From the NCBI RefSeq assembly GCF_008932435.1, contig NZ_WBWE01000021.1:1-42394 (forward strand): a DNA stretch of 42,394 bases. The letters are read 5' to 3'. Made by a program: the position numbers and the translations under genes. Each line of letters begins with the position of its first letter. Positions within the stretch are counted from its first letter, which is position 1. Positions 1-22,108 of the stretch are shown piece by piece. This DNA is from Brucella pseudintermedia (GTDB taxonomy: Bacteria; Pseudomonadota; Alphaproteobacteria; Rhizobiales; Rhizobiaceae). A model generated the notes under the pieces. That model was not told the origin of the DNA and ran no database searches. It worked only from the letters and a program-made list of their open reading frames with translations.

Positions 1-2
1 CG

Positions 3-443
3 CGCCCGGTGCTGACGCGTTCGGTGATGCTGTGGGCGCATGAGCCCTGCCTGTTTGGCTGGGTTCGCGGCAAGAAGCCAAGGATCAATCGCGAGGGTTT
101 TGAAAGCTGGCCGACCACGGTGTGGAATATTCCGTCGTCCGAGATTGAAACCCGCGAGCACCCGACATCAAAACCGGTGCGCGTGTTCACGCTGCCAATG
201 CTGTTGCACACAAGAACCGGTGATATCTGTTACGAGCCGTTTTCAGGCTCCGGATCGCAGCTGATCGCTGGTGAGAAGACCGGCCGCAAGGTTTATGGCC
301 TCGAACTGTCAGAAGCCTTCTGCGATGTCGTCGTCAAACGCTGGCAGGAATATACCGGCAAGCCGGCGACGCTGGATGGTGATGGCCGCAGCTTTGACGC
401 GATCACGGCAGAGCGTGTGCCGGAACAGGCTGATGCGGCATGA
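3..443 (+). CDS. DNA methyltransferase, C-terminal part (5' end outside window)
   Basis: This is the C-terminal part of an N4-cytosine/N6-adenine class DNA methyltransferase. The frame is open from the window edge, so the true start lies upstream. The visible half has HPTSKPV followed by an EPFSGSGS motif, the SAM-binding motif I of the class in which the target-recognition half precedes motif I. After it come a GLELS segment and CDVVVKRWQEYTG, the usual helix at the end of this family. The catalytic DPPY-type motif must lie outside the window and could not be checked. The stop overlaps the next start (ATGA), so the two genes are translationally coupled. Methyltransferases of this kind are common just before the packaging genes of alphaproteobacterial prophages, where they probably protect phage DNA from host restriction. 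Confidence 0.88.
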   Translation, partial: RPVLTRSVMLWAHEPCLFGWVRGKKPRINREGFESWPTTVWNIPSSEIETREHPTSKPVRVFTLPMLLHTRTGDICYEPFSGSGSQLIAGEKTGRKVYGLELSEAFCDVVVKRWQEYTGKPATLDGDGRSFDAITAERVPEQADAA

Positions 444-670
444 AGCAATCGCGCACCATGTCGCTGGTAGAAGCCTTCGCCAATGTCGCAGTTGGTTATG
501 GCATCGCGGTCATCACCCAGATTGTGGTGTTCCCACTGTTCGGACTGACGACCACACTCGCCGAGAACATGGCGATGGGCGCCATCTTCACCGTCGTCAG
601 CATCGCCCGTAGCTACTGTCTGCGCAGGGCGTTTGAAAGCTTGTGGCTGAGCAGAAAACCCAGCGCATGA
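440..670 (+). CDS. small phage membrane protein, DUF7220-like
   Basis: A 76-residue protein that starts inside the stop of the methyltransferase gene (4-base overlap). It has a short polar N-terminus (KQSRTMSLVEAFANVAVGYG), then two hydrophobic stretches (about residues 20-36 and 42-56) separated by a short loop, and a basic C-terminal end. This matches my memory of small two-helix proteins called DUF7220 that recur beside methyltransferase and terminase genes in rhizobial prophages. Function is unknown. It is probably an inner-membrane protein belonging to the phage block. Confidence 0.7.
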   Translation: MKQSRTMSLVEAFANVAVGYGIAVITQIVVFPLFGLTTTLAENMAMGAIFTVVSIARSYCLRRAFESLWLSRKPSA

Positions 671-1053: not shown

Positions 1054-1263
1054 TTAGGCAGCTTGCAGGTTGCAAGCCGACATTTTGCCCGACTTCATGT
1101 CGCGCTCCATGTCATAGGCAATCTTCTGGCCTTCGACGATTTCGCGCATTCCGGCGCGCTCGACGGCAGAGATGTGAACGAAGGCGTCAGCGCCGCCGTT
1201 GTCAGGCTGAATGAAGCCGAAGCCTTTTGTGGAATTGAACCATTTAACTGTGCCAGTGGTCAT
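1054..1263 (-). CDS. cspA: cold-shock protein, CspA family
   Basis: A 69-residue single cold-shock domain (OB fold) that binds single-stranded RNA and DNA and melts RNA structure. Both RNA-binding motifs are intact: RNP1 as KGFGFI (about residues 15-20) and RNP2 as DAFVHI (about 30-35). The start at 1263 gives the family's usual length and N-terminus (MTTGTVKWFN), with AAAGGG a few bases upstream; an in-frame ATG five codons earlier is less likely. The gene runs against the phage genes, with its own terminator (963-992) and a 236-base upstream region that also serves the small terminase gene. That layout is typical of a 'moron': cargo with its own promoter inserted in a phage. The symbol is generic, since these bacteria carry several csp paralogs. 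Confidence 0.95.
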   Translation of the reverse strand: MTTGTVKWFNSTKGFGFIQPDNGGADAFVHISAVERAGMREIVEGQKIAYDMERDMKSGKMSACNLQAA

Positions 1264-1499
1264 AACGAACCCTTTCATAGCAACATAGAGGACTGCAGCG
1301 CCGAGGCGTTACGGATGATGATAGCGATGTTTTAAAGGGAGGGTTCGTTCAAGGCGCGGTGCCAATCGCGCAATAAAAAAGCTCAACAAGAAAATATCGA
1401 TGGCCTTCAATAGGGGCGATTGGACTTGGTGTCAACTTTTACTTTTGCCAATCGTTACGCGAACCGAAATTATCTGGTGCTCACACAAGGAGTTCTGAC
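1264..1499. promoter_or_regulatory. divergent control region with repeated CCAATCG sites
   Basis: No gene is seen here. The region lies between the divergent cspA and small-terminase genes. It holds two direct copies of CCAATCG (1362-1368 and 1448-1454) and one inverted copy (1417-1423). AAGGAG at 1487-1492 is the ribosome site for the terminase gene. In HK97-type phages the cos packaging site usually lies just before the small terminase gene, so the repeats could be terminase-binding sites. They could equally be operators for either promoter; that choice is inference. Confidence 0.5.
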
Positions 1500-1970
1500 A
1501 TGGCCGGCCGCAAGCCGCTGCCAACACATCTGAAGCTGGTCAAGGGCACGGCCCGTCCGCACCGCATGAACAAGGCCGAGCCAAAGCCGGTGGTGGCAGT
1601 TCCCGCGCCGCCGGATCATCTCGACGAGGAAGCGCAGGCGAAGTTCGCCGAGATGGCCGAGATGCTGGCGCGCCATGGCGTGATGACCAAGCTCGATACC
1701 GGTGCGCTCGCCCGTTACGTCGTCATCTGGCGGCGCTGGCTCGACGCAGAACAGGAAGTGAAGCGCCGTGGGCCGGTGGTGAAGACGTCAAACGACAACA
1801 TCATCCAGAACCCGTTCCTGGCCGTCGCCAACAAGTGCCTGGCACAGATGGCGCAGATTGAAAGTGAGTTCGGGCTGACGCCGTCGAGCCGCTCGCGGAT
1901 TCGCATGGCGGAGCCGGCTGAGACCAAAGACCCGTTCGAGGATTTTTTGACCCGTGGCAGAAAAGCGTAA
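1500..1970 (+). CDS. terS: phage terminase small subunit, P27 family
   Basis: A 156-residue DNA-recognition subunit of the packaging motor, which binds near the packaging start site and hands DNA to the large subunit. It begins MAGRKPLPTHLKLVKGT, the signature opening of P27-type small terminases, and keeps the FAEMAEMLARHGVMTKLDTGALARY and SEFGLTPSSRSRI stretches of the family. AAGGAG lies eight bases before the ATG. The length is normal and no frame damage is seen. It overlaps the large subunit gene by 17 bases. Confidence 0.92.
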   Translation: MAGRKPLPTHLKLVKGTARPHRMNKAEPKPVVAVPAPPDHLDEEAQAKFAEMAEMLARHGVMTKLDTGALARYVVIWRRWLDAEQEVKRRGPVVKTSNDNIIQNPFLAVANKCLAQMAQIESEFGLTPSSRSRIRMAEPAETKDPFEDFLTRGRKA

Positions 1971-3726
1971 ATCCGGATCGGCGAGGAAAGCGCCGTCCTG
2001 TCCGGTCGAGGCGTACGCGCGCGCTGTCGCCAGCGGCAAGATTGTTGCCGGGCGCCTGGTGCGGCTTGCCTGCGAGCGTCATCTCGCCGATCTAAAGATG
2101 GGCGCCAAGCGCGGCCTGGTCTGGGATGGCGCTGCGGCACGCCATGCGATCGACTTCTTCGGTCATCTCCGCCATTCGACCGGCGAATGGGCCGGCGAGC
2201 CGTTCGCGCTGCAGCCCTGGCAGCAGTTCGTCGTCGGTTCGCTCTATGGCTGGAAGCGAAAGAATGGGCTGCGCCGTTTCCGTACAGCTTACGTCGAGGT
2301 GGCGAGGAAGAACGGCAAGTCGGTGCTGCTGGCCGGCACGGCGCTTTATGCCTTGATTGCCGATGGCGAGCCCGGCGCGCATGTCTATTCGGCGGCAACG
2401 ACACGGGATCAGGCGAGGATCGTCTTTGGCGAGGCCGAGCGCATGGTGGCGGCAAGCAGCGCCCTGCAGGCAAGGATCACCAGGACGGTGAACAATCTGG
2501 CGGTGCTGCCAACCTCGTCCTGGTTCCGGCCGTTGTCAGCGGATGCCACCAAGATGGACGGTTTGAACATTCATTTTGCGGCTGTCGACGAGGTGCATGA
2601 ACATCCTGGACCCGAGATCATCCAGAAGCTCAACACCGCGACGGGTGCTCGGCGGCAGCCACTGATCTTCGAGATCACCACGGCGGGTTATGATCGCCAT
2701 TCCGTTTGTCGCCAGCATCATGAGTTCTCGGTCAAGGCGCTGGAGGGCACGGTGCCGACAGACTCGTCCGACAGCTGGTTCGGCTATATCGCCACCATCG
2801 ACGACGGCGACGACTGGACTGACCCAGAAGTCTGGGTGAAGGCCAATCCGAGCCTCGGCGTCACCGTCAAACGCGATGACCTCAAGCGCCAGATCGACGA
2901 GGCGAAAGAAATGCCGGCGCAGCAGAATGCGATCCGCCGGCTGCGCCTCAACGAATGGACCGAGCAGGTCACGCGCTGGCTCGACATGAGCGTGTGGGAG
3001 GAAGGCGGACTGCCAGCTGCCACCGACTGGCGCATCGTCAAACACGAACTGGAGGAACTGGAAGGCAAGCTGCTGGGGCGTGAATGCTATGGCGGGCTCG
3101 ACCTGGCCCGCGTCAACGATCTGTCGGCCTTCGTGTTGGTCTTCCCGCCGACACTGGATGAAACGCTTGGAAAGCTTGCCGACAAATGGATCGTCACCTG
3201 CCGGTTCTGGATTCCCGAGGACGACATAGTCCGCCGTGTGCGGCGCGACCGCGTGCCCTATGACGTCTGGCGTGATCAGGGATTCCTGACCGCCACCCCC
3301 GGCAACGCCACCGACTTCGCCTTCGTCGAGAAGGAAATCCTCGAACTGGCATCCCGCTACGATCTGCGTGAACTCTCCTACGACCGCACCTTTGCCGGCG
3401 AGATTGTCCAGCATCTGCAGGATGAAGGCCTGAACCTCGTCCAGTTCGGCCAGGGGTTCTTGTCCATGGCGGCGCCGACGGCGGAACTGGAGCGGTTGTC
3501 GGTCTCTCGCGCCCTCTGGCATGGCGGGCATCCGGTGTTGCGCTGGAACGCATCGAACGTTGCCGTGCGCCATGATCCGGCCGGCAACATCAAGCCCGAC
3601 AAGGAGCGCTCGAGCGAACGCATCGACGGCATTGTCGCGATCTGCAACGCGCTTGGTCGGGCGCTGGCGCGTGACGTCAATGCCGGCCGCTCGGTTTATG
3701 AGAGTCGCGGCATCCTGATGCTGTAG
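1954..3726 (+). CDS. terL: phage terminase large subunit
   Basis: A 590-residue packaging ATPase and nuclease that pumps DNA into the prohead and cuts it into genome units. The N-terminal ATPase has a Walker A variant, ARKNGKS (about 117-123), and a Walker B/DE segment, AAVDEVHEH (about 209-217), followed by an ITTAG coupling motif (about 241-245). The C-terminal RNase H-like nuclease begins at YGGLDLARVNDLSAF (Asp about 383), with a later acidic site near SYDRTFAG. It starts with GTG, 17 bases inside the small-subunit gene. Family: Terminase_1, HK97-like. The frame is full length and intact. Confidence 0.95.
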   Translation: MAEKRKSGSARKAPSCPVEAYARAVASGKIVAGRLVRLACERHLADLKMGAKRGLVWDGAAARHAIDFFGHLRHSTGEWAGEPFALQPWQQFVVGSLYGWKRKNGLRRFRTAYVEVARKNGKSVLLAGTALYALIADGEPGAHVYSAATTRDQARIVFGEAERMVAASSALQARITRTVNNLAVLPTSSWFRPLSADATKMDGLNIHFAAVDEVHEHPGPEIIQKLNTATGARRQPLIFEITTAGYDRHSVCRQHHEFSVKALEGTVPTDSSDSWFGYIATIDDGDDWTDPEVWVKANPSLGVTVKRDDLKRQIDEAKEMPAQQNAIRRLRLNEWTEQVTRWLDMSVWEEGGLPAATDWRIVKHELEELEGKLLGRECYGGLDLARVNDLSAFVLVFPPTLDETLGKLADKWIVTCRFWIPEDDIVRRVRRDRVPYDVWRDQGFLTATPGNATDFAFVEKEILELASRYDLRELSYDRTFAGEIVQHLQDEGLNLVQFGQGFLSMAAPTAELERLSVSRALWHGGHPVLRWNASNVAVRHDPAGNIKPDKERSSERIDGIVAICNALGRALARDVNAGRSVYESRGILML

Positions 3727-3753
3727 GCGCAGGCGCGAAAGAAACGGGAAAAA

Positions 3754-5061
3754 ATGGCATTCTGGTCGAACTGGTTCGGCGGCGCAAAACCGCCGGCCGC
3801 ATCTCCGCGCGCGTCGTTCCAGGATGCGGGTGGCGGGATCGTCATCACCACGGCGCAGCAGCTGGAAGAGGCGCTGCGGTCCGGAGCGGTGACGGCATCG
3901 GGCACGACGGTGACACCCAACAGCGCCATGCGGGTGGCGGCTGTCTATGCCTGCGTGCGCATCATCTCGGGTGCGGTGGCGACACTGCCCTTGCACATCA
4001 AGCGCCGCGTCGATGAGCGCACCCGGCAGGATGCGTCCGACACGCCGATCTGGACGGTGCTGCGACGACGGCCGAACCGCTGGCAGACGCCGTCGCAGTT
4101 TCGCCGCATGCTGCAGGCGCATCTGCTTTTGCGCGGCAATGCCTATGCCATGATCGTGCGCTCGCGCGGGAATGTGCAGGAACTGATCCCGCTGCATCCC
4201 GATCGGGTCGAGGTGAAGCAGACCGACGATCTGACGCTCGAATACACATACAAAAGACAGGACGGACGGCGCATCCAGCTTGCTCAGACGGAAGTGTTCC
4301 ATCTGGTCGGCCTGACGCTCGACGGCGTCCATGGTGTGTCGGCAATCTCTTACGCTCGCGAGACCATCGGCCTGTCGCTGGCCATGGAAGATCATGGCGC
4401 TTCGACCTTCCGCAATGGTGCGCGTGTCAGTGGGGTGCTGAAGCACCCCAACAAGCTCGGGCCAGAGGCTGTCGCCCATCTCAAGGCCGGGCTCGAGGAG
4501 TTCCGCTCCGGCGGCGAGCAGGAGGGAAAGAACCTGATCCTCGAAGAGGGCATGGACTATGCCCGCATCGCCATGACGGCCGAGGATGCGCAATGGCTGG
4601 AGGCCAGAAAGTTCAGCCGCACCGACATTGCCATGTTCTTTGGGGTGCCGCCGCACATGATCGGCGACACCGAAAAATCCACCAGCTGGGGCACCGGCAT
4701 CGAGCAGCAGTCGATCGGCTTCGTCGCCTATACGCTCGAAGACCATCTGACCATGTGGGAAGAGGCGATCAACCGCGACCTGATCGACCCAGAGGGAAAG
4801 CACAACGACAATCTCTATGCCCGCTTTAATCGGGCGGCGCTCGTCAAGGGCGACATCAAGGCGCGCTGGGAAGCTTACGTCAAAGGCCTGCAATGGGGCG
4901 TCTACAGCCCGAACGAAATCCGAGCACTCGAAGACCAGAACCCGCGCGATGGTGGGGATGTCTTCTATCCACCGCCTAACACGGCGGGGATGCCGATCAC
5001 CAACGATGGCGACAATGGCGACAATGATCGGCCGCTCATCGAAAAGGACACTGACACATGA
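3754..5061 (+). CDS. phage portal protein, HK97 family
   Basis: A 435-residue portal subunit, twelve of which form the ring at the capsid vertex through which DNA enters and leaves. Family hallmarks are visible: AVYACVRIISGAVATLPLHI near residue 65, LLRGNAYAMIVR (about 125-136), VFHLVG, and PPHMIGDTEKSTSWGTGIEQQ in the second half, which is characteristic of HK97-type portals. The C-terminus is acidic and disordered. The stop overlaps the protease start by four bases, so portal and protease are coupled as in typical HK97 head modules. Confidence 0.95.
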   Translation: MAFWSNWFGGAKPPAASPRASFQDAGGGIVITTAQQLEEALRSGAVTASGTTVTPNSAMRVAAVYACVRIISGAVATLPLHIKRRVDERTRQDASDTPIWTVLRRRPNRWQTPSQFRRMLQAHLLLRGNAYAMIVRSRGNVQELIPLHPDRVEVKQTDDLTLEYTYKRQDGRRIQLAQTEVFHLVGLTLDGVHGVSAISYARETIGLSLAMEDHGASTFRNGARVSGVLKHPNKLGPEAVAHLKAGLEEFRSGGEQEGKNLILEEGMDYARIAMTAEDAQWLEARKFSRTDIAMFFGVPPHMIGDTEKSTSWGTGIEQQSIGFVAYTLEDHLTMWEEAINRDLIDPEGKHNDNLYARFNRAALVKGDIKARWEAYVKGLQWGVYSPNEIRALEDQNPRDGGDVFYPPPNTAGMPITNDGDNGDNDRPLIEKDTDT

Positions 5062-5903
5062 GCCTTCGCAAACTGCCCGAGGCACGGACGTTCCCTCGGC
5101 CGCAGAACTACCAGTGGGATACGCCGAGCGACGTGCTGGCGAAATGGGCAGAGCACCCTTTTGCCGCTGCGCCCGATGCCGACGCCACCATCTCCATCTT
5201 CGACGTCATCGGCGACGATGGCTGGACAGGCGGCGGCGTCACGGCAAAGCGCATCTCGGCGGCGCTCCGTTCGATCGGAAACAAGGACATTACTGTCCGT
5301 ATCAACTCGCCGGGCGGCGATATGTTCGAGGGGATTGCGATCTACAATCTGCTGCGTGCCCATCCGGCCAAGGTTACGGTCGAGGTGCTGGGCTGGGCGG
5401 CGTCTGCCGCCTCGATCATCGCCATGGCCGGGGATGACATTCGCATGGGGCTCGGCTCCTTCATGATGGTGCACAATGCTTGGGGGCTGGTGATCGGCAA
5501 TCGCCACGACATGCGTGACGCCGCCACCCTGTTCGACCAGTTCGATGCTGCCATTGCTGATATTTACGCAGCACGCACCCGCATGAAGCGCGCCGACATC
5601 GAACAGCTGATGGATGCGGAAACCTTCATGACGGCGGCACAGGCTGTCGAATATGGTTTTGCCGATGTCGTCGACGATGCCGAAATCCACCCAGAGACCA
5701 ATGCGCCCGCGCAGGTCCGTCCTGAAATCCACGCCAAGCGCCGCATCGATGCGGCGTTGGCACAACAGGGCATCTCGCGGACGGAGCGGCGCAAGATGTT
5801 CAACCAGATTGCCGGCATGCACGACGCTGCCGAAACCGCCATGCACGACGCTGGCTCCCATGCAGCCGCCATTCAGCGGCTGATCGACACCATTAGATCA
5901 TAG
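5058..5903 (+). CDS. head maturation (prohead) protease, ClpP-like
   Basis: A 281-residue S14-type serine protease that cleaves the capsid protein's scaffold segment during head maturation. The ClpP fold motifs are present: INSPGGDMFEG (about 82-92), the nucleophile Ser at about 116 in GWAASAAS, the catalytic His at about 139 in MMVHNAWG, and an Asp in the MDAETFMTA helix. The last 80 residues are a phage-specific tail. It lies between portal and capsid genes, with ATGA coupling to the portal stop. No key residue is missing. Confidence 0.94.
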   Translation: MSLRKLPEARTFPRPQNYQWDTPSDVLAKWAEHPFAAAPDADATISIFDVIGDDGWTGGGVTAKRISAALRSIGNKDITVRINSPGGDMFEGIAIYNLLRAHPAKVTVEVLGWAASAASIIAMAGDDIRMGLGSFMMVHNAWGLVIGNRHDMRDAATLFDQFDAAIADIYAARTRMKRADIEQLMDAETFMTAAQAVEYGFADVVDDAEIHPETNAPAQVRPEIHAKRRIDAALAQQGISRTERRKMFNQIAGMHDAAETAMHDAGSHAAAIQRLIDTIRS

Positions 5904-5913
5904 GAGACCCGAG

Positions 5914-7200
5914 ATGGGTATCGAACTGAACCCCGGTGGCCGCGGGCCAGTCCGGGGTATCCTCGGCGTGCGCGCCGAAACCGGTAACGCCACCAAAATC
6001 CTGGCCGAACTGCAGAAGACCTTCGAGGACTTCAAGGTCGAGCGCGACAAGGAACTCGCCGACATCCGGGCCGGCATGGCCGATGTGGTCCAGACCGAAA
6101 AGGTCGACCGTATCAATGCCGAGATCACCGCCCTGCAAAAGGCCCTCGACGAGACCAATGCCGCGCTGGCAGCGGTCAAGGTCGGTGCTGTTGGCGGGAC
6201 GACCGATCCGGACAAGGCCGAACACGCGCAAGCCTTCGACCGCTTCTTCCGTCGCGGCGTCGATGCCGGCCTGCGTGATCTGGAGGTCAAGGCCAAGCTG
6301 ACCACGCAGTCCGACCCCGACGGTGGCTATCTGGTGCCGGAAGAAACCGAAGCCGGCATCGACCGTGTTCTCGGCACGGTGTCGACGATCCGTTCGCTGG
6401 CCCGCACCATCTCGATCTCGACCAATACCTACAAGAAGCTGGTCAATATGGGTGGCGCAACGTCCGGATGGGTCGGCGAGGAACAGGATCGTCCTGGTAC
6501 CGCCACCCCGACCTTGCGCGAGATCGCCATCAATACCGGCGAGATCTACGCCATGCCCGGCGCCACGCAGACATCGCTCGACGATGCCGGCATCGATCTG
6601 GCGGCGTGGCTGGCCGATGAAGTGTCGATCGAGTTCGCTGAGCAGGAAGGAGCTGCCTTCGCCAATGGCGATGGCGTCAACAAGCCACGCGGCATTCTTG
6701 CCTACGACACGGTGGCGAATGCTTCCCATGCATGGGGCAAGCTCGGCTTTATTGCCTCGGGCAAAGCGGATGGCTTCCTGGCTGCGACCGCTTCGGTCAG
6801 CCCGGCCGATTGCCTGATCGATCTCTACTATGCGCTCAAGTCCGGCTACCGGAACGGGGCATCGTGGCTGATGTCGGATGCGACCATGAACACGGTGCGC
6901 AAGTTCAAGGATGCGGAAGGCGCCTATATCTGGGCGCCGCCATCGGGTGCAGCCGAAGTCGCCACTATCCTCGGCAAGCCGGTCTACACCGACGACAACA
7001 TGCCGGCGGCAGAGGCCAGCAAGTTCCCCATCGCCTTCGGGGACTTCGGTCGCTCCTACCTGATCGTCGACCGCATCGGCATCCGGGTGCTGCGTGATCC
7101 GTTCACCTCCAAGCCGAACGTCCTGTTCTACACGACCAAGCGCGTCGGCGGCGGCGTGGTCAACTTCGAGGCGCTCAAGCTGCTGAAGGTCAGCACCTGA
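5914..7200 (+). CDS. major capsid protein, HK97 family
   Basis: A 428-residue HK97-fold shell protein. Residues about 20-90 form a charged coiled coil (ILAELQKTFEDFKVERDKELADI and onward), the delta/scaffold domain expected to be removed by the upstream protease. The mature shell domain starts near the LTTQSDPDGGYLVPEE segment, a standard landmark, and includes ANGDGVNKPRGIL and the C-terminal KRVGGGVVNFEALKLLK. AGGAG ends eight bases before the ATG. The gene is full length, so shell assembly is plausible. Confidence 0.95.
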   Translation: MGIELNPGGRGPVRGILGVRAETGNATKILAELQKTFEDFKVERDKELADIRAGMADVVQTEKVDRINAEITALQKALDETNAALAAVKVGAVGGTTDPDKAEHAQAFDRFFRRGVDAGLRDLEVKAKLTTQSDPDGGYLVPEETEAGIDRVLGTVSTIRSLARTISISTNTYKKLVNMGGATSGWVGEEQDRPGTATPTLREIAINTGEIYAMPGATQTSLDDAGIDLAAWLADEVSIEFAEQEGAAFANGDGVNKPRGILAYDTVANASHAWGKLGFIASGKADGFLAATASVSPADCLIDLYYALKSGYRNGASWLMSDATMNTVRKFKDAEGAYIWAPPSGAAEVATILGKPVYTDDNMPAAEASKFPIAFGDFGRSYLIVDRIGIRVLRDPFTSKPNVLFYTTKRVGGGVVNFEALKLLKVST

Positions 7201-7267
7201 TCCACATGACGGGCGGCTCCGGCTGCCCGTCTCTTCACAATTCCCATTCATCGAAAGGACTCCTGTC

Positions 7268-7654
7268 ATGAAGGACGGTATCTCCGGCCTCAGCCTGGTT
7301 GCGTCTCTGGTTCCGGCCGTGGTCACGGCCACCACCAAGGGCAGCCATGCCGATCTGCAGGGCTACAACGCGGCAACGCTGATCATCACCACCGGGGCGA
7401 TTGCCGGCGACGGCGTGTTCGACGTGAAGCTGCAGCATGCCGACACCACGGACGACGGCGACTTCAGCGACGTTGCCGCAGCCGACCTCCAGGGCACTCT
7501 ACCGGCAGCGCTCGAAGCCGACACGGTCTGCAAGCAGGGCTACAAGGGCAACAAGCGCTACATTCGTGCCGTCATCACCAAAACCTCCGGCACGTCGATC
7601 GCCGCGGGTGCGATCTTTGCGCTCGGCCATCCCCACGACGCGCCGGTCGCCTGA
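7268..7654 (+). CDS. putative virion protein, unknown role
   Basis: A 128-residue protein rich in Thr, Ala and Gly, with alternating beta-like stretches (AATLIITTGAIAGDGVFDVKLQHADTT and similar) and no transmembrane segment. GAAAGGACT lies a few bases before the ATG. It sits between capsid and connector, where phages often encode a head decoration or stabilising protein. I recognise similar unannotated genes at this position in rhizobial prophages but no characterised family, so a structural role is inferred from position alone. Confidence 0.75.
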   Translation: MKDGISGLSLVASLVPAVVTATTKGSHADLQGYNAATLIITTGAIAGDGVFDVKLQHADTTDDGDFSDVAAADLQGTLPAALEADTVCKQGYKGNKRYIRAVITKTSGTSIAAGAIFALGHPHDAPVA

Positions 7655-7731
7655 TCGGTCAGAGCGGCCAGACAGTCGGCAGCGCCGAGATTCTGGCCAC
7701 CCCCCGTTCATCAACCTGTTGGAAGACAGCC

Positions 7732-8301
7732 ATGCTCGCTCCCGTCCGCACGGTTGCGCCCGCGACCATGCCGGTGACGCTGGCCGAGGCCAAAGCCCAT
7801 CTGCGTGTTGATCATGATGACCAGGACGATCTGATCACCGCCCAGATCAAGGCGGCGACGGCATATCTCGACGGCTATGCCGGCATTCTCGGCCGGGCGC
7901 TGATCACTCAGACCTGGCGGCAGGATCTTGCCGGCTTTGCCGATCGCCTGCCTCTGCCAGTATCGCCGGTGATCGCCATCGTCAGCGTCAGCTACTGCGA
8001 CGTCGGCAATGTGGTGCAGACATTGGACGCCGGCGTCTATGACCTGTTTACCGACACGCGTGGCGCCTATCTCACCCTGCGGCCGGGGCAATCCTGGCCG
8101 GCCACCTTCCGTCGCGCTGACGCCGTCTCCATCACCTTCATCGCCGGCTTTGGCGCGGCGGCCGACGTGCCTGAGCCCATCCGCCAGGCCATCCTGCTCA
8201 TCGTCCAGCGGCTGTTCGATGGCGCTGACACCGAAATCGATATCGCCATCGAGGGCACCGTTCATGCCCTGATTGCACCCTACCGGAAAAGTCCGATCTG
8301 A
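7732..8301 (+). CDS. phage head-tail connector (adaptor) protein
   Basis: A 189-residue protein of the phiE125 gp8 / HK97 gp6-like connector type. The N-terminal MPVTLAEAKAHLRVDHDDQDDLI followed by IKAATAYLDGYAG is the classic opening of these adaptors, which stack under the portal ring. The middle is a beta-rich domain (YDLFTDTRGAYLTLRPGQSWP, ITFIAGFG), and the C-terminal helix PEPIRQAILLIVQRLFDG is also typical. It overlaps the head closure gene as TGATG, so the two are coupled. Confidence 0.88.
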   Translation: MLAPVRTVAPATMPVTLAEAKAHLRVDHDDQDDLITAQIKAATAYLDGYAGILGRALITQTWRQDLAGFADRLPLPVSPVIAIVSVSYCDVGNVVQTLDAGVYDLFTDTRGAYLTLRPGQSWPATFRRADAVSITFIAGFGAAADVPEPIRQAILLIVQRLFDGADTEIDIAIEGTVHALIAPYRKSPI

Positions 8302-8648
8302 TGGCCAGGATCACCGCCAACGATCTGCGTGATCGTGTCAGCTTCGAAAAGCGCGAGGAGATCGATGATGGCTATGGCAACACCTATGGCCAGTGGGTGC
8401 CACAGTTCGAGCGCGACGCCTGCATTCTACTCTCCAAGGGCGGCGAGACCGTCATTGCCGCACGCCTGCAAAGCGTTCAGCCGGCGCTGATAATCGTGCG
8501 CTACGATGCCGAGACCGCAACCATTACCGCTGCCTGGCGGCTGATCGAGACCCGTTCCGGCACCACCTACAACATCCGCACATCCGCCGACATGGAGCGG
8601 CGCGGCCGCTTCATCACCATGCTTTGCGAGGCCGGCGCGCCAACGTGA
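8301..8648 (+). CDS. phage head closure protein
   Basis: A 115-residue protein of the SPP1 gp16 / HK97 head-closure family, which seals the connector after DNA packaging and forms the surface that receives the tail. Landmarks are LRDRVSFEKREEIDDGYGN near the start, the RDACILLSKGGE strand and the closing RTSADMERRGRFITMLCE. It starts on the connector's stop. It is the last recognisable morphogenesis gene: the gp10-like tail completion, tail tube, tape-measure and tip genes expected next are absent. Confidence 0.88.
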   Translation: MARITANDLRDRVSFEKREEIDDGYGNTYGQWVPQFERDACILLSKGGETVIAARLQSVQPALIIVRYDAETATITAAWRLIETRSGTTYNIRTSADMERRGRFITMLCEAGAPT

Positions 8649-8770
8649 CCGTAACCCTGGCGTGGGCCGTGGCGGGCCAACGATAAGAACGAAACCCTGA
8701 TCGCACCCCGCCTGGCGCAAGAGCTATGCGTCCTGCCTTTACACTGGCATGCCCGCGAAAGGACATCATC

Positions 8771-9604
8771 ATGAACGCCAACGTGCCCACCGGCGCGGCG
8801 ACCCTGCCTGCGTCCGACAAATATCATGTTTACCGGCCCATGCTCGACTTGATCGGTTTTGCCGAGGGTACCGACCGAAAGCGCGGCTATAATGAAACGC
8901 TCGCCTATGGCGCCTTTACCGGCGGCGACGTCGATCTGGTTGCCATGACATTGCAGGAGGTTGATGCGCTGCAGACCCGGATGCTGAAGCATCCGGACAA
9001 CCGCTTTAACTCATCAGCGCTCGGCCGCTACCAGATCGTCCGCACCACGCTGCGGACGATCGCCAAGACGCTCAAGCTTCCGCCGTCGGCACTGTTTGAT
9101 GCCGAGATGCAGGACCGATGCGCCTGCTACCTCCTCGGCCTGCGTGGCATCGACAAGTATCTGGCGGGGCGGCTCTCGGAAGATACGCTGATCAACAATC
9201 TTGCCCATGAATGGGCTTCGCTCCCCACTGCGATGGGCAAGGGTGCTTATGCCGGCCAGAACGCAGCTGTCGGTCCGGATCGCGTACGTCAGGTTCTTGT
9301 CGAGGTTCGGAAACGCCATGGCGCAACCCAGCCAGCACGCGAGATTGTGGTTGAGAAGGAAATCGACAAGCCTGTGGTTCCGGTCAGCGTTGAAACAGAA
9401 ATCCGCAAGCGTACCGATCAGTGGAGCTGGATCACCACCATCTTCGGCTCGGGCAGTGCCGGACTTGCCGCACTTGCTGGCATGGACTGGCAGTCTGTTA
9501 TGGCAATCGGCGCGCTTGCGCTGGGCGGGCTCATCATCGCGCTGCTGTTACGGCGTCAGATTGTGTGTGCCGTCAGAGACGTGAGAAGAATTATCGAGGG
9601 GTGA
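8771..9604 (+). CDS. lysozyme-like endolysin with C-terminal membrane segment
   Basis: A 277-residue protein. The N-terminal half is a lysozyme-like muramidase domain: IGFAEGTDRKRGYNETLAYG with the candidate catalytic Glu at about 32, then SSALGRYQI (about 81-89), the pattern of lambda-type/GH104 endolysins. Residues about 150-220 are a charged linker, followed by one or two hydrophobic stretches (about 225-262) and a basic tail, so it is probably tethered in the inner membrane. I chose the ATG at 8771 because GAAAGGAC precedes it; a start 15 codons earlier adds an unlikely leader. It follows the head closure gene directly, where tail genes would normally be. No separate holin or spanin is seen, and the hydrophobic tail may help export. 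Confidence 0.82.
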   Translation: MNANVPTGAATLPASDKYHVYRPMLDLIGFAEGTDRKRGYNETLAYGAFTGGDVDLVAMTLQEVDALQTRMLKHPDNRFNSSALGRYQIVRTTLRTIAKTLKLPPSALFDAEMQDRCACYLLGLRGIDKYLAGRLSEDTLINNLAHEWASLPTAMGKGAYAGQNAAVGPDRVRQVLVEVRKRHGATQPAREIVVEKEIDKPVVPVSVETEIRKRTDQWSWITTIFGSGSAGLAALAGMDWQSVMAIGALALGGLIIALLLRRQIVCAVRDVRRIIEG

Positions 9605-9658: not shown

Positions 9659-10828
9659 TCACGCACTCACGAAATTGCTCACAGAACTTGCCACCGTTCG
9701 ATTGCGACCGCTCCTTTTAGCTTCGTAAAGGCGATTATCGGCCGACTTATAAAGATGCTTCCATCGACCGCCCGTCGCGGTCGCTATGCCGAAGCTGGCT
9801 GTTATGCGGGCTCGATCAACAACATGCGAAAAATTTGCCTCCGAAATAGCGGTGCGAAATCGCTCCGCGCATTCGTAAGCTTCTGTGCCGTCTGTGTCTG
9901 ACAGAAAGATGGCGAATTCTTCGCCCCCAACGCGCCCGACTACATCGCGTTTGCGCTTGGTTCGCACCAGGACCTTTGCGATCTCCTGCAGCACCCTGTC
10001 TCCGACCTCATGACCAGGGGCATCATTGATCGATTTGAAGTGATCGATATCGCATAGAATTAGCGAGGCGGTTACGCTACCAGACCGCCGAACAGCAGTT
10101 GCTATAGCGTCTTCGAAGCCACGGCGATTTAGGATCCCGGTCAGATGGTCAATATCCCGCTCATGGCGAAGGTCATCTATAACATCTGCGACGGATGCAG
10201 CGAGGATCGCCAAGGCAAACCCTGAGCCCAGCACTGCAAGTGAGAGTTGAAGCGCTTGCCAGAATACTGAATTTTCAAAGACCGCTGGGTCAATCGGCTC
10301 CGAGAAGCCGATTGTTAAAATAGTGCGGGGAAAAAAATGCAGGCCGAAAGCAAGCAGACTCCAGAAAAGGATACGGTCTCCCAAGCGCCCTCCTGCGAGA
10401 CCTGACAAGCGATACGCTGCCACGAGAAGAATAATGCCATAGCCGAAATTCTGGATGTAAATCCGAGCTATCAGGTTTCGGTCAACGTAGAAGAAATACC
10501 AGAGCAGCCCCCAGAATACGACAAAAATCGCGATGTTTGCGCCGAGGCCAAGGCTTCTTTCGGAGCGCAAAAGAACACCTTCGACGGCCATCAAAACCGC
10601 CGTCGTGTACAGCGCTCCCGAAACCATCGCGTTGAGGCCAATATCCACAGGACAGTGGAGAATCTGGCTAGCAGCGCCCATTGCGAAGAGCATACACGCG
10701 CCGGCTAGCAGCAGGAGATAGTTCCGCTTTCGGTCGATCAACCATGCAGAGGCGAACGCAATCCCGAATACGACGAGTATTCCAGGACCGATTAAGGATA
10801 GGGTAATTCGGACGATGGCGGGATCCAT
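9659..10828 (-). CDS. membrane diguanylate cyclase (GGDEF), product-inhibited type
   Basis: A 389-residue inner-membrane protein with about six hydrophobic helices in residues 1-215, a short linker and a GGDEF domain (about 225-385). The domain is intact: DHLTGILNRRGFE, DIDHFKSIND and the active-site GGEEF. An RKRD sequence five residues before GGEEF matches the RxxD inhibitory site, so feedback inhibition by cyclic di-GMP is expected. It should make c-di-GMP from two GTP. The sensory N-terminus matches no named domain I know. Its 3' end meets the endolysin gene tail-to-tail 54 bases away, marking the right edge of the phage block. A protein of identical length and layout lies at 22109-23278. 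Confidence 0.93.
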   Translation of the reverse strand: MDPAIVRITLSLIGPGILVVFGIAFASAWLIDRKRNYLLLLAGACMLFAMGAASQILHCPVDIGLNAMVSGALYTTAVLMAVEGVLLRSERSLGLGANIAIFVVFWGLLWYFFYVDRNLIARIYIQNFGYGIILLVAAYRLSGLAGGRLGDRILFWSLLAFGLHFFPRTILTIGFSEPIDPAVFENSVFWQALQLSLAVLGSGFALAILAASVADVIDDLRHERDIDHLTGILNRRGFEDAIATAVRRSGSVTASLILCDIDHFKSINDAPGHEVGDRVLQEIAKVLVRTKRKRDVVGRVGGEEFAIFLSDTDGTEAYECAERFRTAISEANFSHVVDRARITASFGIATATGGRWKHLYKSADNRLYEAKRSGRNRTVASSVSNFVSA

Positions 10829-11462: not shown

Positions 11463-11778
11463 ATGCGTGGATTTGTTGATGATATCGAAGAACTGACCGA
11501 GGGGAATACGGATTTCCGCCGTGTGCTCTACACAGCGAAAAACATGCAGCTCGTGGTGATGGCCCTTGATTGATGGGGTGGTAAGCAAGATCAAGTCCGA
11601 TATGGCCATGATCGTACCCGCTGGCGCGCGGCACAATGTGAAGAACACAGGCGACAAGCCGTTGAAGCTTTATACGATCTATAGCCCCCCGGAGCATGTT
11701 GATGGCGTGGTTCACCCAACCAAGAGCGATGCCGATACTGACCATGAGCACTTCGATGGAAAGACAAGCGAAGGGTAG
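11463..11778 (+). pseudogene. cupin-domain protein broken by an internal deletion
   Basis: The 5' part reads MRGFVDDIEELTEGNTDFRRVLYTAKNMQLVVMALD and then hits a stop. In another frame the sequence resumes at about 11569 with IDGVVSKIKSDMAMIVPAGARHNVKNTGDKPLKLYTIYSPPEH to the normal end. Both halves belong to one small cupin of roughly 130 residues that I recognise from proteobacteria. The missing block, about 28 residues by comparison with remembered homologs, holds the first cupin metal-binding motif (the G..H.H....E strand), and the junction also shifts the frame. GGAAAGGAG still precedes the start. The remaining protein cannot form the metal site. Confidence 0.8.
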
Positions 11779-11852: not shown

Positions 11853-13850
11853 GTGAAGGCCCTGATTAATCTCGATCGTTCGATCGCCCTAACCACGCTG
11901 ACCGTTATCGGGATGCTGCTGGCCATTCTCGCGTTCTGGCCGCTGCGAGGGGATGTCGCCGGCCTCGTTTCGGCGGTGGGTCTTGCCCTTGTCTATCTTG
12001 CAGGCGGTCTGCCCGCAGGCTGGCGGGCTGCCGTCACCTTGTGGGAAGAACGCATCCTCGACATCGACCTTCTCATGGTCGTTGCCGCCGTCGCTGCGGC
12101 AGCGGTCGGCGCTCCGTTCGAAGGCGCGGTTCTGCTGACGCTGTTCAGCATTTCGACCACACTGGAAGAGCGCGCGCTCGGTCGCGCCCGCCGGGCTATC
12201 GAGGCGTTGATGGCGCTGCGCCCGGAAACGGCGCTGCGCAAGGAGGCGGACGGGTCGGTGTCGGAAATCCCCGCCGCCGATCTGCGCGTGGACGACATCG
12301 TGATCCTGCGTCCCGGCGCGCGCGTTCCTGCCGATGCGGTGATCGTCAGCGGTCGCGGCTCTCTCGATGAGGCGAACATCACCGGCGAATCCATGCCGGT
12401 CGCCAAGGAGCCCGGAGCGCAAATCTTCGAGGCCACGGTCAATATCGACGGCGTGCTGGAAGCCGCTGTGACGAAGACGGTCGCGGAAAGCACTGTGGCG
12501 CGCATGATCGCGCTGGTCACCGAAGCGCAGGCAGCCAAGGCTCCTTCGGAGCGGTTCAGCGCATGGTTCGGTCAGCGCTACACGATTGCGGTGATGGCGG
12601 GCGCAGTCCTTGCCTTCTTCGCCTTCTATTGGCTGGGGCGCGATTGGGAGGAAGCGCTTTATCGATCCGCAACCCTGCTGGTGGCGGCAAGCCCCTGTGC
12701 GATCGTCATTTCGGTGCCCGCCGCCATTCTGTCGGCGCTGTCAGCGGCTGCGCGCGGCGGCGTGCTGTTCAAGGGGGGAGCCGCCCTTGAAACGCTGGCA
12801 GCCGTGGACGCCTTCGCTTTCGACAAGACCGGCACACTGACTACCGGCAAAGCGTCCGTCACGCAGGTGGTCGCGCTCGATGGCGACGAGCAGGCTTTTC
12901 TGTCGCTGCTTGCCGGTCTCGAAGCCCAGTCGGAGCATCACAGCGCCGCAGCCATTCGGCAGGAAGCCGCCATCCGGGGCGTTGCACCGGTCGAGGTCAG
13001 CGATGTCGCCACGCGACCGAGCGCGGGCATTGTCGGCAGTGATGGCGCAGGTCTCCTATGGGCGGGCAACCCGCGCCTTGCCGAGCAGATGGGCGCTTCC
13101 ATCGGCCATCCGGCGCTGCGGGCATTGGCGGCGGATGCGCAGACGGTCATCTATGCGGGTCGTGACTCGCATGTTCTGGGCGCGGTCACCGTGGCCGATA
13201 CCGCGCGCGCAACCTCCAAGCCTGCACTTGCGGCACTACGCAAAGGCGGGGTCGAGAGTATCGTCATGATGACCGGAGACCGGCTCCCTGTCGCTCTGCG
13301 GATCGGCACGGAACTTGGGCTCAGCCCTGAGGAAATCCACGCCGACATGCTGCCCGAAGACAAGGTGCGGATGGCTGGCGAACTTGCGGCAAAGGGCAAG
13401 GTGGCGTTCGTGGGGGATGGCGTCAATGACGCGGCGGCACTCGCCCGCGCCGATGTGGGGATCGCCATGGGCGCGGCGGGATCGGACGTCGCGCTTCAGG
13501 CCGCCGATGTGGCACTGCTCTCGGAAGACATGGGGCGGCTTGCCGACGCGCACCGGCTCGCTCGCAGGACGGCAGTGATCATCCGGCAGAACCTGACCTT
13601 CGCCATGGGAGCCATGGCGATACTCGTCATCGGCGGCCTATTTTTCGAGCTGCCCTTGCCATTGGCGGTCATCGGCCACGAAGGCGGAACGGTGCTGGTG
13701 GTGCTGAACGGCCTGCGGCTGCTCAGGGACCCCATCCGCGCCAGAGAGGCAAAGCCGACATCCACTTTCCGTGCGGAGAGTACTACGGACGAGGGCAGTC
13801 CTGTGAAGCGCCATGCCTACACCAGAAAGGTGCCACGGCGGGCGGCGTGA
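11853..13850 (+). CDS. P1B-4-type heavy-metal exporting ATPase
   Basis: A 665-residue inner-membrane ATPase that pumps transition metal out of the cytosol. Motifs in order: TGES (177-180), the membrane metal site SPC (280-282), the phosphorylated Asp in DKTGTLT (324-330), TGD (474-476), GDGVND (521-526), and HEGGT in the last membrane segment (609-613). SPC with HEGGT defines the P1B-4 group (CoaT/CtpD/PfeT-like), whose substrates are Co, Fe(II), Zn or Ni rather than Cu. There is no N-terminal metal-binding domain, as is usual in that group. The dipeptide normally read as HP in the nucleotide-binding domain is HH here (SEHHSA, about 360-365). It starts with GTG after CAGGAG. The C-terminal 35 residues are polar and may be an extension. 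No metal-sensing regulator is adjacent. Confidence 0.93.
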   Translation: MKALINLDRSIALTTLTVIGMLLAILAFWPLRGDVAGLVSAVGLALVYLAGGLPAGWRAAVTLWEERILDIDLLMVVAAVAAAAVGAPFEGAVLLTLFSISTTLEERALGRARRAIEALMALRPETALRKEADGSVSEIPAADLRVDDIVILRPGARVPADAVIVSGRGSLDEANITGESMPVAKEPGAQIFEATVNIDGVLEAAVTKTVAESTVARMIALVTEAQAAKAPSERFSAWFGQRYTIAVMAGAVLAFFAFYWLGRDWEEALYRSATLLVAASPCAIVISVPAAILSALSAAARGGVLFKGGAALETLAAVDAFAFDKTGTLTTGKASVTQVVALDGDEQAFLSLLAGLEAQSEHHSAAAIRQEAAIRGVAPVEVSDVATRPSAGIVGSDGAGLLWAGNPRLAEQMGASIGHPALRALAADAQTVIYAGRDSHVLGAVTVADTARATSKPALAALRKGGVESIVMMTGDRLPVALRIGTELGLSPEEIHADMLPEDKVRMAGELAAKGKVAFVGDGVNDAAALARADVGIAMGAAGSDVALQAADVALLSEDMGRLADAHRLARRTAVIIRQNLTFAMGAMAILVIGGLFFELPLPLAVIGHEGGTVLVVLNGLRLLRDPIRAREAKPTSTFRAESTTDEGSPVKRHAYTRKVPRRAA

Positions 13851-17673: not shown

Positions 17674-17928
17674 ATGTCTCGAACGACCACGATGACGGTC
17701 CGCATCAGTGGCACGCTCAGCGATTTCGTTGCCGCCAATGTCAGCGAGAACGGATCTTATGAAAACATCAGCGAATATGTCCGAGATCTGATCCGCCGCG
17801 ATAAGGAGCGGGTAGAGATGGAAGCATTTGATCGGCTGAAGGGTGAACTGACACTTGCTTTCGCCGCACCCGAGGCGTCCTACAAGCCGCTCACTGCGCG
17901 CGAAGTGATCGCGCGGAACCGGGCCTGA
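17674..17928 (+). CDS. parD: antitoxin, ParD-like (CopG/ribbon-helix-helix)
   Basis: An 84-residue antitoxin. The N-terminal MTVRISGTLSDFVAANV forms the DNA-binding ribbon, and GSYENISEYVRDLIRRDKE is the typical ParD helix pair. The C-terminal half should wrap the toxin. It would neutralise the downstream protein and repress the operon. AAAGGAG precedes the ATG, and the stop overlaps the toxin start (TGATG). The pair lies between a relaxase fragment and an AT-rich gap, a common place for plasmid or island addiction modules. Confidence 0.88.
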   Translation: MSRTTTMTVRISGTLSDFVAANVSENGSYENISEYVRDLIRRDKERVEMEAFDRLKGELTLAFAAPEASYKPLTAREVIARNRA

Positions 17929-18242
17929 TGGCTGCTGTCCGTGTTCAGGAGGCAGCCTCTCACCGTCTCGACGAGATCTACCGCTACACGCAGGAAAGAT
18001 GGGGTACCGATCAAGCAGATCGGTACATTACCGGATTGTTCGATGCTTTCGGCAAGATCGAAACTCACAGTGTCATGTCGAAGCCCGTCCCTGCGGAGTT
18101 CGACGTAGAGGGATATTTCTTCCGATACGAACGGCATTTCGTCTATTGGCGCCGTCTCTCGAACGGAGATATCGGCATCGTTACAATCCTCCACCAGCGC
18201 ATGCACCAGATGGATCGGTTCCGCGAGGATTTTGGCTTGTAA
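17928..18242 (+). CDS. parE: toxin, RelE/ParE superfamily
   Basis: A 104-residue toxin. The pattern VQEAASHRLDEIYRYTQERWGTDQADRYI and later FFRYERHFVYWRRLSNGDIGIVTILHQRMHQMDRF is typical of ParE-type proteins, which share the RelE fold but usually poison DNA gyrase instead of cutting mRNA. The partner gene's ParD character supports ParE. It is full length with no frame damage and is translationally coupled to the antitoxin. The target is inferred from family only. Confidence 0.88.
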   Translation: MAAVRVQEAASHRLDEIYRYTQERWGTDQADRYITGLFDAFGKIETHSVMSKPVPAEFDVEGYFFRYERHFVYWRRLSNGDIGIVTILHQRMHQMDRFREDFGL

Positions 18243-19807: not shown

Positions 19808-19836
19808 CTGCGCTTCTCGGGAGCGATTTTCGAGTA

Positions 19837-19923
19837 CCGGAGCAGGGCGTACTTGCAAGCATAGTCGCGAAAAGTTGCAGCCTTTTCGGGACTATGCGTC
19901 CGAGAAAGGTACGTGAGCACCGG
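19837..19923. repeat. palindromic intergenic repeat
   Basis: The core is a near-perfect inverted repeat at 19859-19897 (GCATAGTC..CGAAAAG paired with CTTTTCG..GACTATGC, one mismatch). It is flanked by looser arms containing CCGGAGCAGGGCGTAC and GTACGTGAGCACCGG. The layout resembles the intergenic palindromes scattered in Brucella and Ochrobactrum genomes. It sits between two convergent genes. Confidence 0.6.
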
Positions 19924-19927
19924 AATA

Positions 19928-21939: not shown

Positions 21940-22108
21940 GATACAACCCGAGTGGAAAACAACTTTCCCTGCACCGCCTTGCATGTCGGTCCGGCAAAAG
22001 ACGAACAAGACATGGCAAGGCGGTGACTGGAAGGTCATCTCCAGCATCGCCAATTATGGTAACCAAATCCTTTACGGGATGAAGAAAACCGGATCGGCGG
22101 GAACGGGT

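What the first reader, a model, noticed from the sequence alone, without database searches (positions are those of the whole stretch)
1500..9604. Complete head and packaging module with no tail genes, ending in an endolysin
All eight genes from the small terminase to head closure look intact, with normal lengths and coupling, and the next gene is a lysozyme-like endolysin. A tail module of typically 10-15 kb is missing without any frame damage at the join (8649-8770). Neutral decay of a prophage would be expected to scatter stops. Capsid-forming phage satellites described in other bacteria keep exactly this set (terminase, portal, protease, capsid, connector, closure) and take tails from helper phages. 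This could be such a satellite in the Brucella group. The left end, with integrase and replication genes, is outside the window, so a clean tail deletion remains possible.
Basis: partly seen in the sequence, partly recalled or inferred. Interest (0 to 1): 0.72.

Follow-up and report, generated by a model that had tools for sequence, protein, structure and literature searches.

The report
Phage-sized satellite that lacks tail genes
This stretch is part of a mobile DNA element that carries genes for a virus head, DNA packaging and cell lysis but no recognisable tail gene; related tail-less copies sit in many other bacteria of the same class, so it likely builds its own heads and would borrow tails from other phages to carry defence and probable metal-resistance genes between cells.

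Summary
In detail: eight intact head and packaging genes (1500-8648) are followed directly by a lysozyme, with no tail gene. It is not a deletion in this strain. The genome has a second element, 85-91% similar through the head module, with the same join. Collections gave 42 non-redundant copies of the packaging lineage (TerL at least 65% identical); none hits any of 18 tail profiles, while 27 of 30 control relatives do; 21 of the 42 have long downstream sequence. Head genes are under purifying selection (median dN/dS 0.06-0.26). Three lysis modules and several head modules are swapped on one backbone: serine recombinase, AlpA-like regulator, Sak4-like protein, helicase, primase, HNH nuclease, terminase.

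Where both ends are seen, elements lie between the 3' end of a tRNA-Ser gene (or the preceding unit) and a 36-nt right-end motif; the window's right end is 18365, so the element runs far beyond the finding and carries cargo. Eight complete units are 37-45 kb, about three times the published cf-PICI average (14 kb). Segment lengths compensate (permutation P 0.016), suggesting a packaging limit.

Best reading: a phage-sized lineage of capsid-forming satellites in Alphaproteobacteria, with cargo where tail genes would lie. Packaging, helper and tail capture are inferred.

The parts
1..443 (+). 3' part of ParB/N6-type DNA methyltransferase; rest lies on the shared left arm (contig C10:11600-12657)
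   Evidence: Pfam N6_N4_Mtase; window 1-127 = C10:12531-12657 exactly
440..670 (+). DUF7220 protein, found before TerS in the family
   Evidence: Pfam PF23858; maps
1054..1278 (-). cold-shock-domain protein (optional gene, present in some elements)
   Evidence: Pfam CSD; family F36 in window, Aae, Fsh, V2844
1500..1970 (+). terminase small subunit
   Evidence: Pfam Terminase_4, phrog_83; median dN/dS 0.078
1954..3726 (+). terminase large subunit, marker of the tail-less lineage
   Evidence: Pfam TerL_ATPase, TerL_nuclease; no phage or plasmid record at 60% or more
3754..5061 (+). portal protein
   Evidence: Pfam Phage_portal
5058..5903 (+). ClpP-type head maturation protease
   Evidence: Pfam CLP_protease, phrog_1684
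5914..7200 (+). HK97-type major capsid protein
   Evidence: Pfam Phage_capsid, phrog_10; median dN/dS 0.085
7268..7654 (+). conserved head-module protein of unknown function
   Evidence: phrog_5707
7732..8301 (+). head-tail adaptor (Ad1-like)
   Evidence: Pfam Phage_connect_1, phrog_442/40
8301..8648 (+). head closure protein Hc1, last virion gene and predicted docking face for a foreign tail
   Evidence: phrog_25; docking role inferred
8726..9604 (+). lysozyme-type endolysin with a hydrophobic C-terminal segment (residues 257-275)
   Evidence: phrog_90; hydropathy
9659..10828 (-). cargo: diguanylate cyclase (GGDEF)
   Evidence: Pfam GGDEF; lysozyme plus this region 97% identical over 2.46 kb in Aquamicrobium aerolatum
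11578..11778 (+). cargo: cupin-domain protein, shared cargo family F46
   Evidence: Pfam Cupin_2, just below the curated cut-off; F46
11853..13850 (+). cargo: P-type ATPase, shared cargo family F28 (metal export by inference)
   Evidence: Pfam E1-E2_ATPase and Hydrolase; F28 in six elements
14670..17003 (+). cargo: GGDEF-EAL signalling protein
   Evidence: Pfam EAL, GGDEF, VUPS, PAS_8
17692..17928 (+). cargo: probable antitoxin partner of the ParE gene
   Evidence: no Pfam hit; inferred from position
17928..18242 (+). cargo: ParE-family toxin
   Evidence: Pfam ParE_toxin
18330..18365 (+). right attachment site: 36-nt motif ending in the tRNA-Ser 3' end (CTCTCCGCCA)
   Evidence: motif in 11 of 18 extended sequences; the chromosome beyond it lies downstream of tRNA-Ser(GGA) in relatives

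Best explanation
The block is the packaging, head and lysis segment of an integrative element that encodes no recognisable tail and most likely spreads as a capsid-forming phage satellite, predicted to build and fill its own heads and to fit them with tails supplied by a helper phage. Shown from sequence: the gene set, the absence of tail-gene hits across the lineage, the tRNA-Ser insertion site with its two ends, purifying selection on every head gene, and the exchange of lysis, head and cargo modules. Inferred: the serine recombinase, with the AlpA-like protein as excision factor or regulator, would excise the element; the primase, helicase and Sak4-like protein would replicate it; HNH, TerS and TerL would cut and pump its DNA into HK97-type heads; Ad1 and Hc1 would close the head and present the face to which a siphovirus tail docks; its own endolysin would help release. 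The place where sister phages keep their tail genes holds cargo instead, so the element stays near the length of a full phage genome (37-45 kb in complete units) rather than shrinking to fit a small capsid. Helper identity is unknown; two prophages with tail genes in the same genome are candidates.
For: Head genes intact. Second element in the same genome with the same join. 0 of 47 lineage sequences (fragments and decayed copies included) hit any of 18 tail HMMs, against 27 of 30 control relatives, several of which appear to be the same genomes as training contigs. Wider set, duplicates included: 0 of 76 sequences with TerL at 65% or more, i.e. 42 non-redundant TerL clusters from 71 full-length copies, 21 of them with at least 6.5 kb beyond the capsid gene; of 145 other relatives 87 have tail hits, 50 are too short to judge, 8 are long without a hit. 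dN/dS medians: TerS 0.078, TerL 0.062, portal 0.119, protease 0.212, capsid 0.085, g5707 0.182, Ad1 0.255, Hc1 0.152, from 16 of the 26 mapped elements, 107-119 of 120 pairs each. Left arm: Resolvase+Recombinase, DUF2924, HTH_17; excisionase/regulator-like, Sak4-like, helicase, primase/helicase, RuvC-like, HNH. Borders: tRNA-Ser left of the recombinase in 7 of 18 extended sequences plus contig C11, right-end motif in 11 of 18; most of the rest do not reach that end. Empty site in the relatives examined. Unit lengths mean 42.0 kb, SD 2.2 kb, n=8, against 4.6 kb if segments varied independently, permutation P 0.016. MCP tree: most lineage capsids nested among tailed phages, a second capsid type joining a different tailed relative. 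Two prophages with tail genes in the same genome. In Hyphomicrobiales, incomplete prophages preferentially lose head genes and are enriched in tail genes (passage in PMC11080155), the opposite of this pattern.
Against: No particle, packaged DNA or transfer was observed. No helper is identified. The tail HMMs come from sister phages, so a wholly different tail type could be missed; the PHROG tally shows only 25 of 116 families hit by the 92 downstream proteins and is not exhaustive. Three control relatives (L136, L159, L233) also lack hits. 39 of the 76 lineage sequences have under 6.5 kb beyond the capsid gene. Some copies are damaged: two in Chelativorans sp. Marseille-P2723 (Chv_c without a capsid gene, Chv_d without a head module and with a TerL stop), a third there has its capsid in two overlapping frames, a partial TerL in Mesorhizobium Root157 has a stop, and the Paracoccus 2a lysis module is truncated; these were left out of the dN/dS set. 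The length test rests on eight units, and some borders lie inside tandem arrays. The window element's full length relies on exact 127-nt contig overlaps, not on one contig.
Confidence: 0.8

Rival explanations
1. Deletion remnant: a temperate siphophage lost its tail module by a clean deletion and is decaying.
For: Head genes are phage-derived, capsid up to 87% identical to tailed sisters. The left arm has integration and regulatory genes. Some copies are decayed.
Against: No tail hit in 42 non-redundant copies, and three different lysis modules follow Hc1. Purifying selection in all eight head genes. Units keep near phage length. Incomplete prophages in this order tend to keep tails and lose heads (PMC11080155 passage).
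Confidence: 0.04
2. Split phage: the element depends on one fixed tail locus in the host chromosome, for example a resident gene transfer agent, rather than on a phage.
For: 221 of 297 family genomes hold a capsid homologue at E 1e-40 or better, mostly one per genome and, among the rows listed, mostly 46-52% identical, as a chromosomal GTA would be (the GTA reading is recalled, not tested). Connector genes and a tail-terminator-type gene lie beside three such loci examined (L102, L107, L111).
Against: No match between the element's Hc1/Ad1 and such a locus was tested or found. The sister tailed phages are much closer in capsid.
Confidence: 0.08
3. Domesticated particle producer (gene-transfer-agent-like) that packages host DNA rather than itself.
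For: Head module without phage tail; chromosomal; conserved under selection.
Against: It looks mobile: att sites, tandem arrays and near-identical pieces in different genera. It has its own replication, HNH and terminase genes; GTAs keep tails (recalled).
Confidence: 0.04
4. Virion with an unrecognised self-encoded tail, or a tail-less virion.
For: Several proteins have no known function (for example phrog_5707).
Against: A lysis gene follows Hc1 directly in 22 of 26 mapped elements, and cargo beyond it differs widely between elements, leaving no shared candidate tail gene there.
Confidence: 0.04

Closest known systems
Capsid-forming PICIs (cf-PICIs)
   Same: Own capsid, protease, portal, connectors, TerS, TerL and HNH, no tail genes; dependence on helper tails only (definition from a passage of PMC10690885; the original paper, doi 10.1016/j.chom.2022.12.001, was seen only as a reference). 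Integrase, AlpA-type regulator and primase also shared (recalled for PICIs).
   Different: 37-45 kb against an average of 14 kb (PMC10803314 passage); large serine recombinase and DUF2924 at tRNA-Ser; own swappable lysis module (whether cf-PICIs have one was not checked); large cargo; Alphaproteobacteria, which the same passage does not list among main cf-PICI hosts. Homology to PICI regulators or primases not tested.
MulchRoom/MiniFlayer satellites of Streptomyces phages
   Same: Own head and packaging module; MulchRoom particles have a helper-length tail that the authors attribute to the helper (PMC10690885 passages).
   Different: Small (about 44 nm) capsids and no primase; here a primase/helicase is present and the genome is phage-sized.
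Tailed HK97-type phages of Hyphomicrobiales (L043, L044, L045, L129 and others)
   Same: Capsid up to 87% identical, same head gene order.
   Different: TerL only 19-33% identical, tail modules present.
P4-like satellites and SaPI-type PICIs
   Same: Integrase, AlpA-type regulator, primase, cargo and defence genes (recalled).
   Different: Those take the helper's capsid (recalled); this element encodes its own.

Membership tests
cf-PICI | encodes capsid, protease, portal, connectors | tested here: met
cf-PICI | encodes TerS, TerL and HNH endonuclease | tested here: met
   (HNH at C10:11052-11468 on the shared left arm)
cf-PICI | no tail genes | tested here: met
   profiles from sister phages only
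cf-PICI | integrase, AlpA-type regulator and primase | tested here: met
   the integrase is a large serine recombinase
cf-PICI | small genome (published average 14 kb) | tested here: not met
   units 37.4-44.9 kb
cf-PICI | small capsid | not testable with these tools
   needs electron microscopy
cf-PICI | homology to the PICI backbone | not tested
   no PICI sequence compared
cf-PICI | induced by and tailed by a helper phage | not testable with these tools
   needs experiment
temperate tailed phage | tail module | tested here: not met
gene transfer agent | complete head and tail cluster, not self-mobilising (recalled) | tested here: not met
   no tail-gene hits; att sites and tandem arrays
decaying prophage remnant | relaxed selection, disrupted frames | tested here: not met
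   open frames in the window and dN/dS in 16 of 26 elements; a few other copies are damaged

The most novel reading that the evidence does not exclude
A lineage of full-length satellites, spread over several families and two orders of Alphaproteobacteria, has given up the whole tail module and uses that space as a cargo bay (DISARM, type I restriction, probable metal and arsenic resistance, c-di-GMP signalling, in one case groESL) while keeping a phage-sized genome and a normal-sized capsid. It re-equips a fixed integration, replication and terminase backbone with head and lysis modules taken from tailed phages, and relies on any resident phage, or even the host's gene transfer agent, for tails: a modular delivery vehicle, not a dwarf parasite.
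Probability: 0.55. Interest if true: 0.85.

Novelty: new variant of a known kind. Interest (0 to 1): 0.76.

Why it matters
Described satellites have genomes about one third of their helpers', and many shrink the capsid to fit (PMC10803314 passage). A satellite lineage that keeps phage length and fills the place of the tail module with cargo would be a route for moving well over 10 kb of cargo, including whole defence systems, between distant bacteria, without encoding host range. It makes testable which tail features a foreign head accepts and whether several helpers can serve one head. In an order with many 'incomplete prophages' (PMC11080155 passages), some tail-less ones may be working elements. 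The listings of the searches made showed no report of capsid-forming satellites in Alphaproteobacteria; most listed papers were not opened, and the library lacks most subscription papers.

Tried and rejected
Attachment sites were first sought as direct repeats between the two ends; only short matches of 11-17 nt, none shared between elements, appeared. Mapping the left border in Mesorhizobium Root552 beside groEL gave no right flank; the tRNA-Ser found later at 8142-8231 of that extended stretch puts groESL between the element's left end and its recombinase. Rfam found no RNA at the right end. A loose motif scan gave mostly noise and its output was cut; a stricter one replaced it. A search of the genus with the DNA just right of the lysozyme found only short GGDEF-domain similarity, which first suggested that this region is cargo. 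That C10 and the window element simply form a tandem array was weighed against C10 being a closed circle; C10's recombinase and its right end both resemble Gellertiella's, which favours the circle, but reads are needed. Phage and plasmid records hold no close TerL, so the element is not an isolated phage or a plasmid of those collections. Names given to mer- and ars-like cargo, the M15- and GH19-like lysis genes and groES come from reading the sequences; groEL has a PHROG hit in a tally. The labels of the tail HMM families come from gene position together with the PHROG tally.
Full report
What is there. The window is contig C13 of a 44-contig genome of 4.39 Mb and begins inside the element. 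Genes 1500-8648 are a complete HK97-type packaging and head module. The next gene, 8726-9604, is a lysozyme-type endolysin. Nothing resembling a tail gene follows.

Not a local deletion. Contig C10 of the same genome has a second element: its TerL is 94% identical, its DNA is 85-91% similar up to Hc1 and about 80% in the lysozyme, and the Hc1-lysozyme join is the same. IMG/VR and named genomes gave more: Chelativorans, Chelatococcus, Paracoccus, Falsochrobactrum, Labrys, Nitrobacter (partial), Mesorhizobium, Aquamicrobium and Gellertiella, that is Hyphomicrobiales and, with Paracoccus, Rhodobacterales (for four of them, the rest recalled). Gene maps of 26 elements show one backbone: serine recombinase, DUF2924 protein and a further small protein on the leftward strand; then AlpA-like, Sak4-like, SSB-like, helicase, primase, RuvC-like, HNH, methyltransferase, DUF7220, TerS, TerL, head genes. 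Right after Hc1 comes a lysozyme in 9 elements, an M15-like module in 9 and a GH19-like module in 4; two stretches run out and two copies are decayed. One element (Labrys) carries two lysis modules; in Paracoccus 2a the M15-like gene is truncated. In several layouts the left arm is partly inverted or replaced.

Tail test. I built HMMs from 18 gene families downstream of the head module in 22 sister contigs. PHROGs finds tail completion, major tail, tape measure and distal tail families among such genes (57 proteins from 5 of the sisters). Against six-frame ORFs, 0 of 47 lineage sequences and 27 of 30 control relatives hit at E 1e-3 or better. The misses are L136, L159 and L233; several controls appear to be the same genomes as training contigs. 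In the wider set, duplicates included, 76 sequences have TerL at 65% or more and none has a tail hit; 39 of these have under 6.5 kb beyond the capsid gene and are weak evidence alone. They hold 71 full-length TerL copies, which collapse to 42 clusters at 99.5% identity, 21 with long downstream sequence. Of the 145 other relatives, 87 have tail hits, 50 are too short, and 8 are long without a hit (L017, L067, L136, L159, L233, L245, L246, L260; L017 has a 94% capsid and no TerL on its fragment). The PHROG tally of 92 dereplicated proteins within 8 kb after Hc1 in 20 elements shows no tail family among the 25 of 116 families listed; the only tail-labelled hits seen are cross-matches of the lysozyme. 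Four IMG/VR copies (L225, L226, L228, L229) have TerL 70-80% identical but quite different head modules, again with no tail hit.

Selection and origin. All eight head genes show purifying selection in 16 of the 26 elements, damaged and divergent copies left out; the adaptor Ad1 is the least constrained (0.255). In the MCP tree (109 rows, quick method) 25 of 30 lineage capsids fall in one group of 36 rows that also holds four tailed relatives (L043, L044, L045, L131); a second capsid type (Pko_1, L222, L223, L253) joins tailed L148 with 99 support; L224 is apart on a long branch that the program flags as unsure. The tree needs at least 10 label changes, 6 forced by well-supported branches. I read this as head modules gained more than once on the same TerL backbone. 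No phage record (of 2,291 with a match) and no plasmid record (of 555) has TerL at 60% or more.

Borders. In 18 extended sequences, ARAGORN finds a tRNA-Ser left of the recombinase in 7; most of the others do not reach the left end, and in Chelatococcus the left neighbour is another unit's right end. A right-end motif ending in CTCCGCCA is found in 11 of 18; in the decayed Chv_d it lies left of the recombinase. The window's motif is at 18330-18365. Of 35 genomes of the genus, 32 match the DNA right of it in some part; I fetched 8 of the best. In all 8 a tRNA gene lies upstream of the syntenic segment (window 19927 on): tRNA-Ser(GGA) in 7, a tRNA of unassigned type in L352. The distance is 72-81 nt in four (L349, L351, L352, L353), about 0.5 kb in L354, 1.8 kb in L350, 4.4 kb in L348 and 12 kb in L355, which may hold other inserts. 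In L353, window 18356-18384 aligns at 93% to the tRNA 3' end plus the following bases. Contig C11 ends in the same site: its chromosome is syntenic with the three relatives compared (L348, L349, L353) up to tRNA-Ser(GGA) 525037-525126, and the left end of an element follows. Window 18366-19926 lies between attR and the syntenic segment and is not explained.

Left arm of the window element. The last 127 nt of C11 equal the first 127 nt of C10, and the first 127 nt of the window equal C10:12531-12657. So C10:1-12657 is read as a left arm shared by both elements. C10's own first and last 127 nt are identical, and it holds a junction that joins a right-end motif directly to an element left end; a search of the assembly with 270 nt across it found only this place. 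C10's recombinase region (93%) and right end (96%) both match Gellertiella's element. I read C10 as a closed circle of 44,593 bp, that is an excised form, with the window element as the chromosomal copy (about 36.9 kb); a tandem array (about 44.3 and 37.2 kb, by hand) is not excluded.

Length. Eight complete units (seven bounded by att sites and the C10 circle) average 42.0 kb (37.4-44.9, SD 2.2). With the Falsochrobactrum unit (40.0 kb, uncertain right end) and the window element added, the mean is 41.3 and the SD about 2.6 (by hand). Left, early and right segments vary by SDs of 2.9, 1.8 and 3.1 kb, yet the total varies less than independent segments would (4.6 kb; permutation P 0.016). Sixteen IMG/VR relatives outside the lineage with contigs of 38 kb or more, chosen by that cut, have a median of 41.9 kb (lengths); they may be incomplete, and one of them (L067) has no tail hit. 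I infer a packaging limit near that of a full HK97-type head.

Cargo. In the window: GGDEF, cupin, P-type ATPase, GGDEF-EAL, ParE with probable antitoxin. In C10: a DISARM set (DrmC, DrmB, DrmA, DrmMI, DrmD, DrmMII) and a sulfate-permease-family gene. Elsewhere: type I restriction, mer- and ars-like genes and groESL read from sequence. Aquamicrobium aerolatum shares 2.46 kb of lysozyme and cargo at 97% with the window, which points to recent transfer.

Mechanism. Step by step, with what is shown and what is inferred, see Best explanation. Candidate helpers: two prophages with tail genes in the same genome (C7 and C21); in Mesorhizobium Root157 a tailed sister with a capsid 87% identical to the window's.

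Known kinds. It works like a cf-PICI. It meets the gene-content features I could test, but not the size feature, and homology to the PICI backbone was not tested. I therefore call it a new variant: a phage-sized capsid-forming satellite.

Noticed in passing
C10 (L006, L007, L356), 44720 bp: Contig ends overlap by 127 identical nt and the fused end junction occurs once in the assembly: probably a closed circular form of the second element.
   Followed up: partly
L007:1686-17176 (C10:21686-37176): DISARM defence set (six Drm-type proteins) as cargo of the second element.
   Followed up: yes
Paracoccus kondratievae chromosome 2 array (L183, L317): A 14.2-kb island between two right-end motifs with no hit to the recombinase, TerL or capsid queries: a cargo-only unit in the tandem array.
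   Followed up: partly
window 8726-9604; lysis genes in L183, L191, L197 and others: Three different lysis enzymes (lysozyme type, M15-like, GH19-like) carry a hydrophobic C-terminal segment in 20 of 21 copies by hydropathy, suggesting membrane-tethered endolysins.
   Followed up: partly
window about 19821-19925: About 100 nt that recur many times in genomes of the genus: a dispersed repeat just before the syntenic chromosome.
   Followed up: no
window 18366-19926: 1.6-kb segment between attR and the syntenic chromosome; in 4 of 8 relatives examined only 72-81 nt lie between the tRNA and that chromosome.
   Followed up: no
L009 (C7) and L008 (C21): Two prophages with tail genes in the same genome; the C21 TerL match has one in-frame stop.
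   Followed up: partly
L192, Mesorhizobium Root552: A groESL operon lies between the element's left end at tRNA-Ser and the recombinase.
   Followed up: no
L225, L226, L228, L229: Same TerL lineage (70-80%) with very different head modules and no tail hit.
   Followed up: partly
Chv_b element in L178: Capsid gene read in two overlapping frames (element coordinates 21845-22216 and 22213-23127): a split gene or a frameshift.
   Followed up: partly
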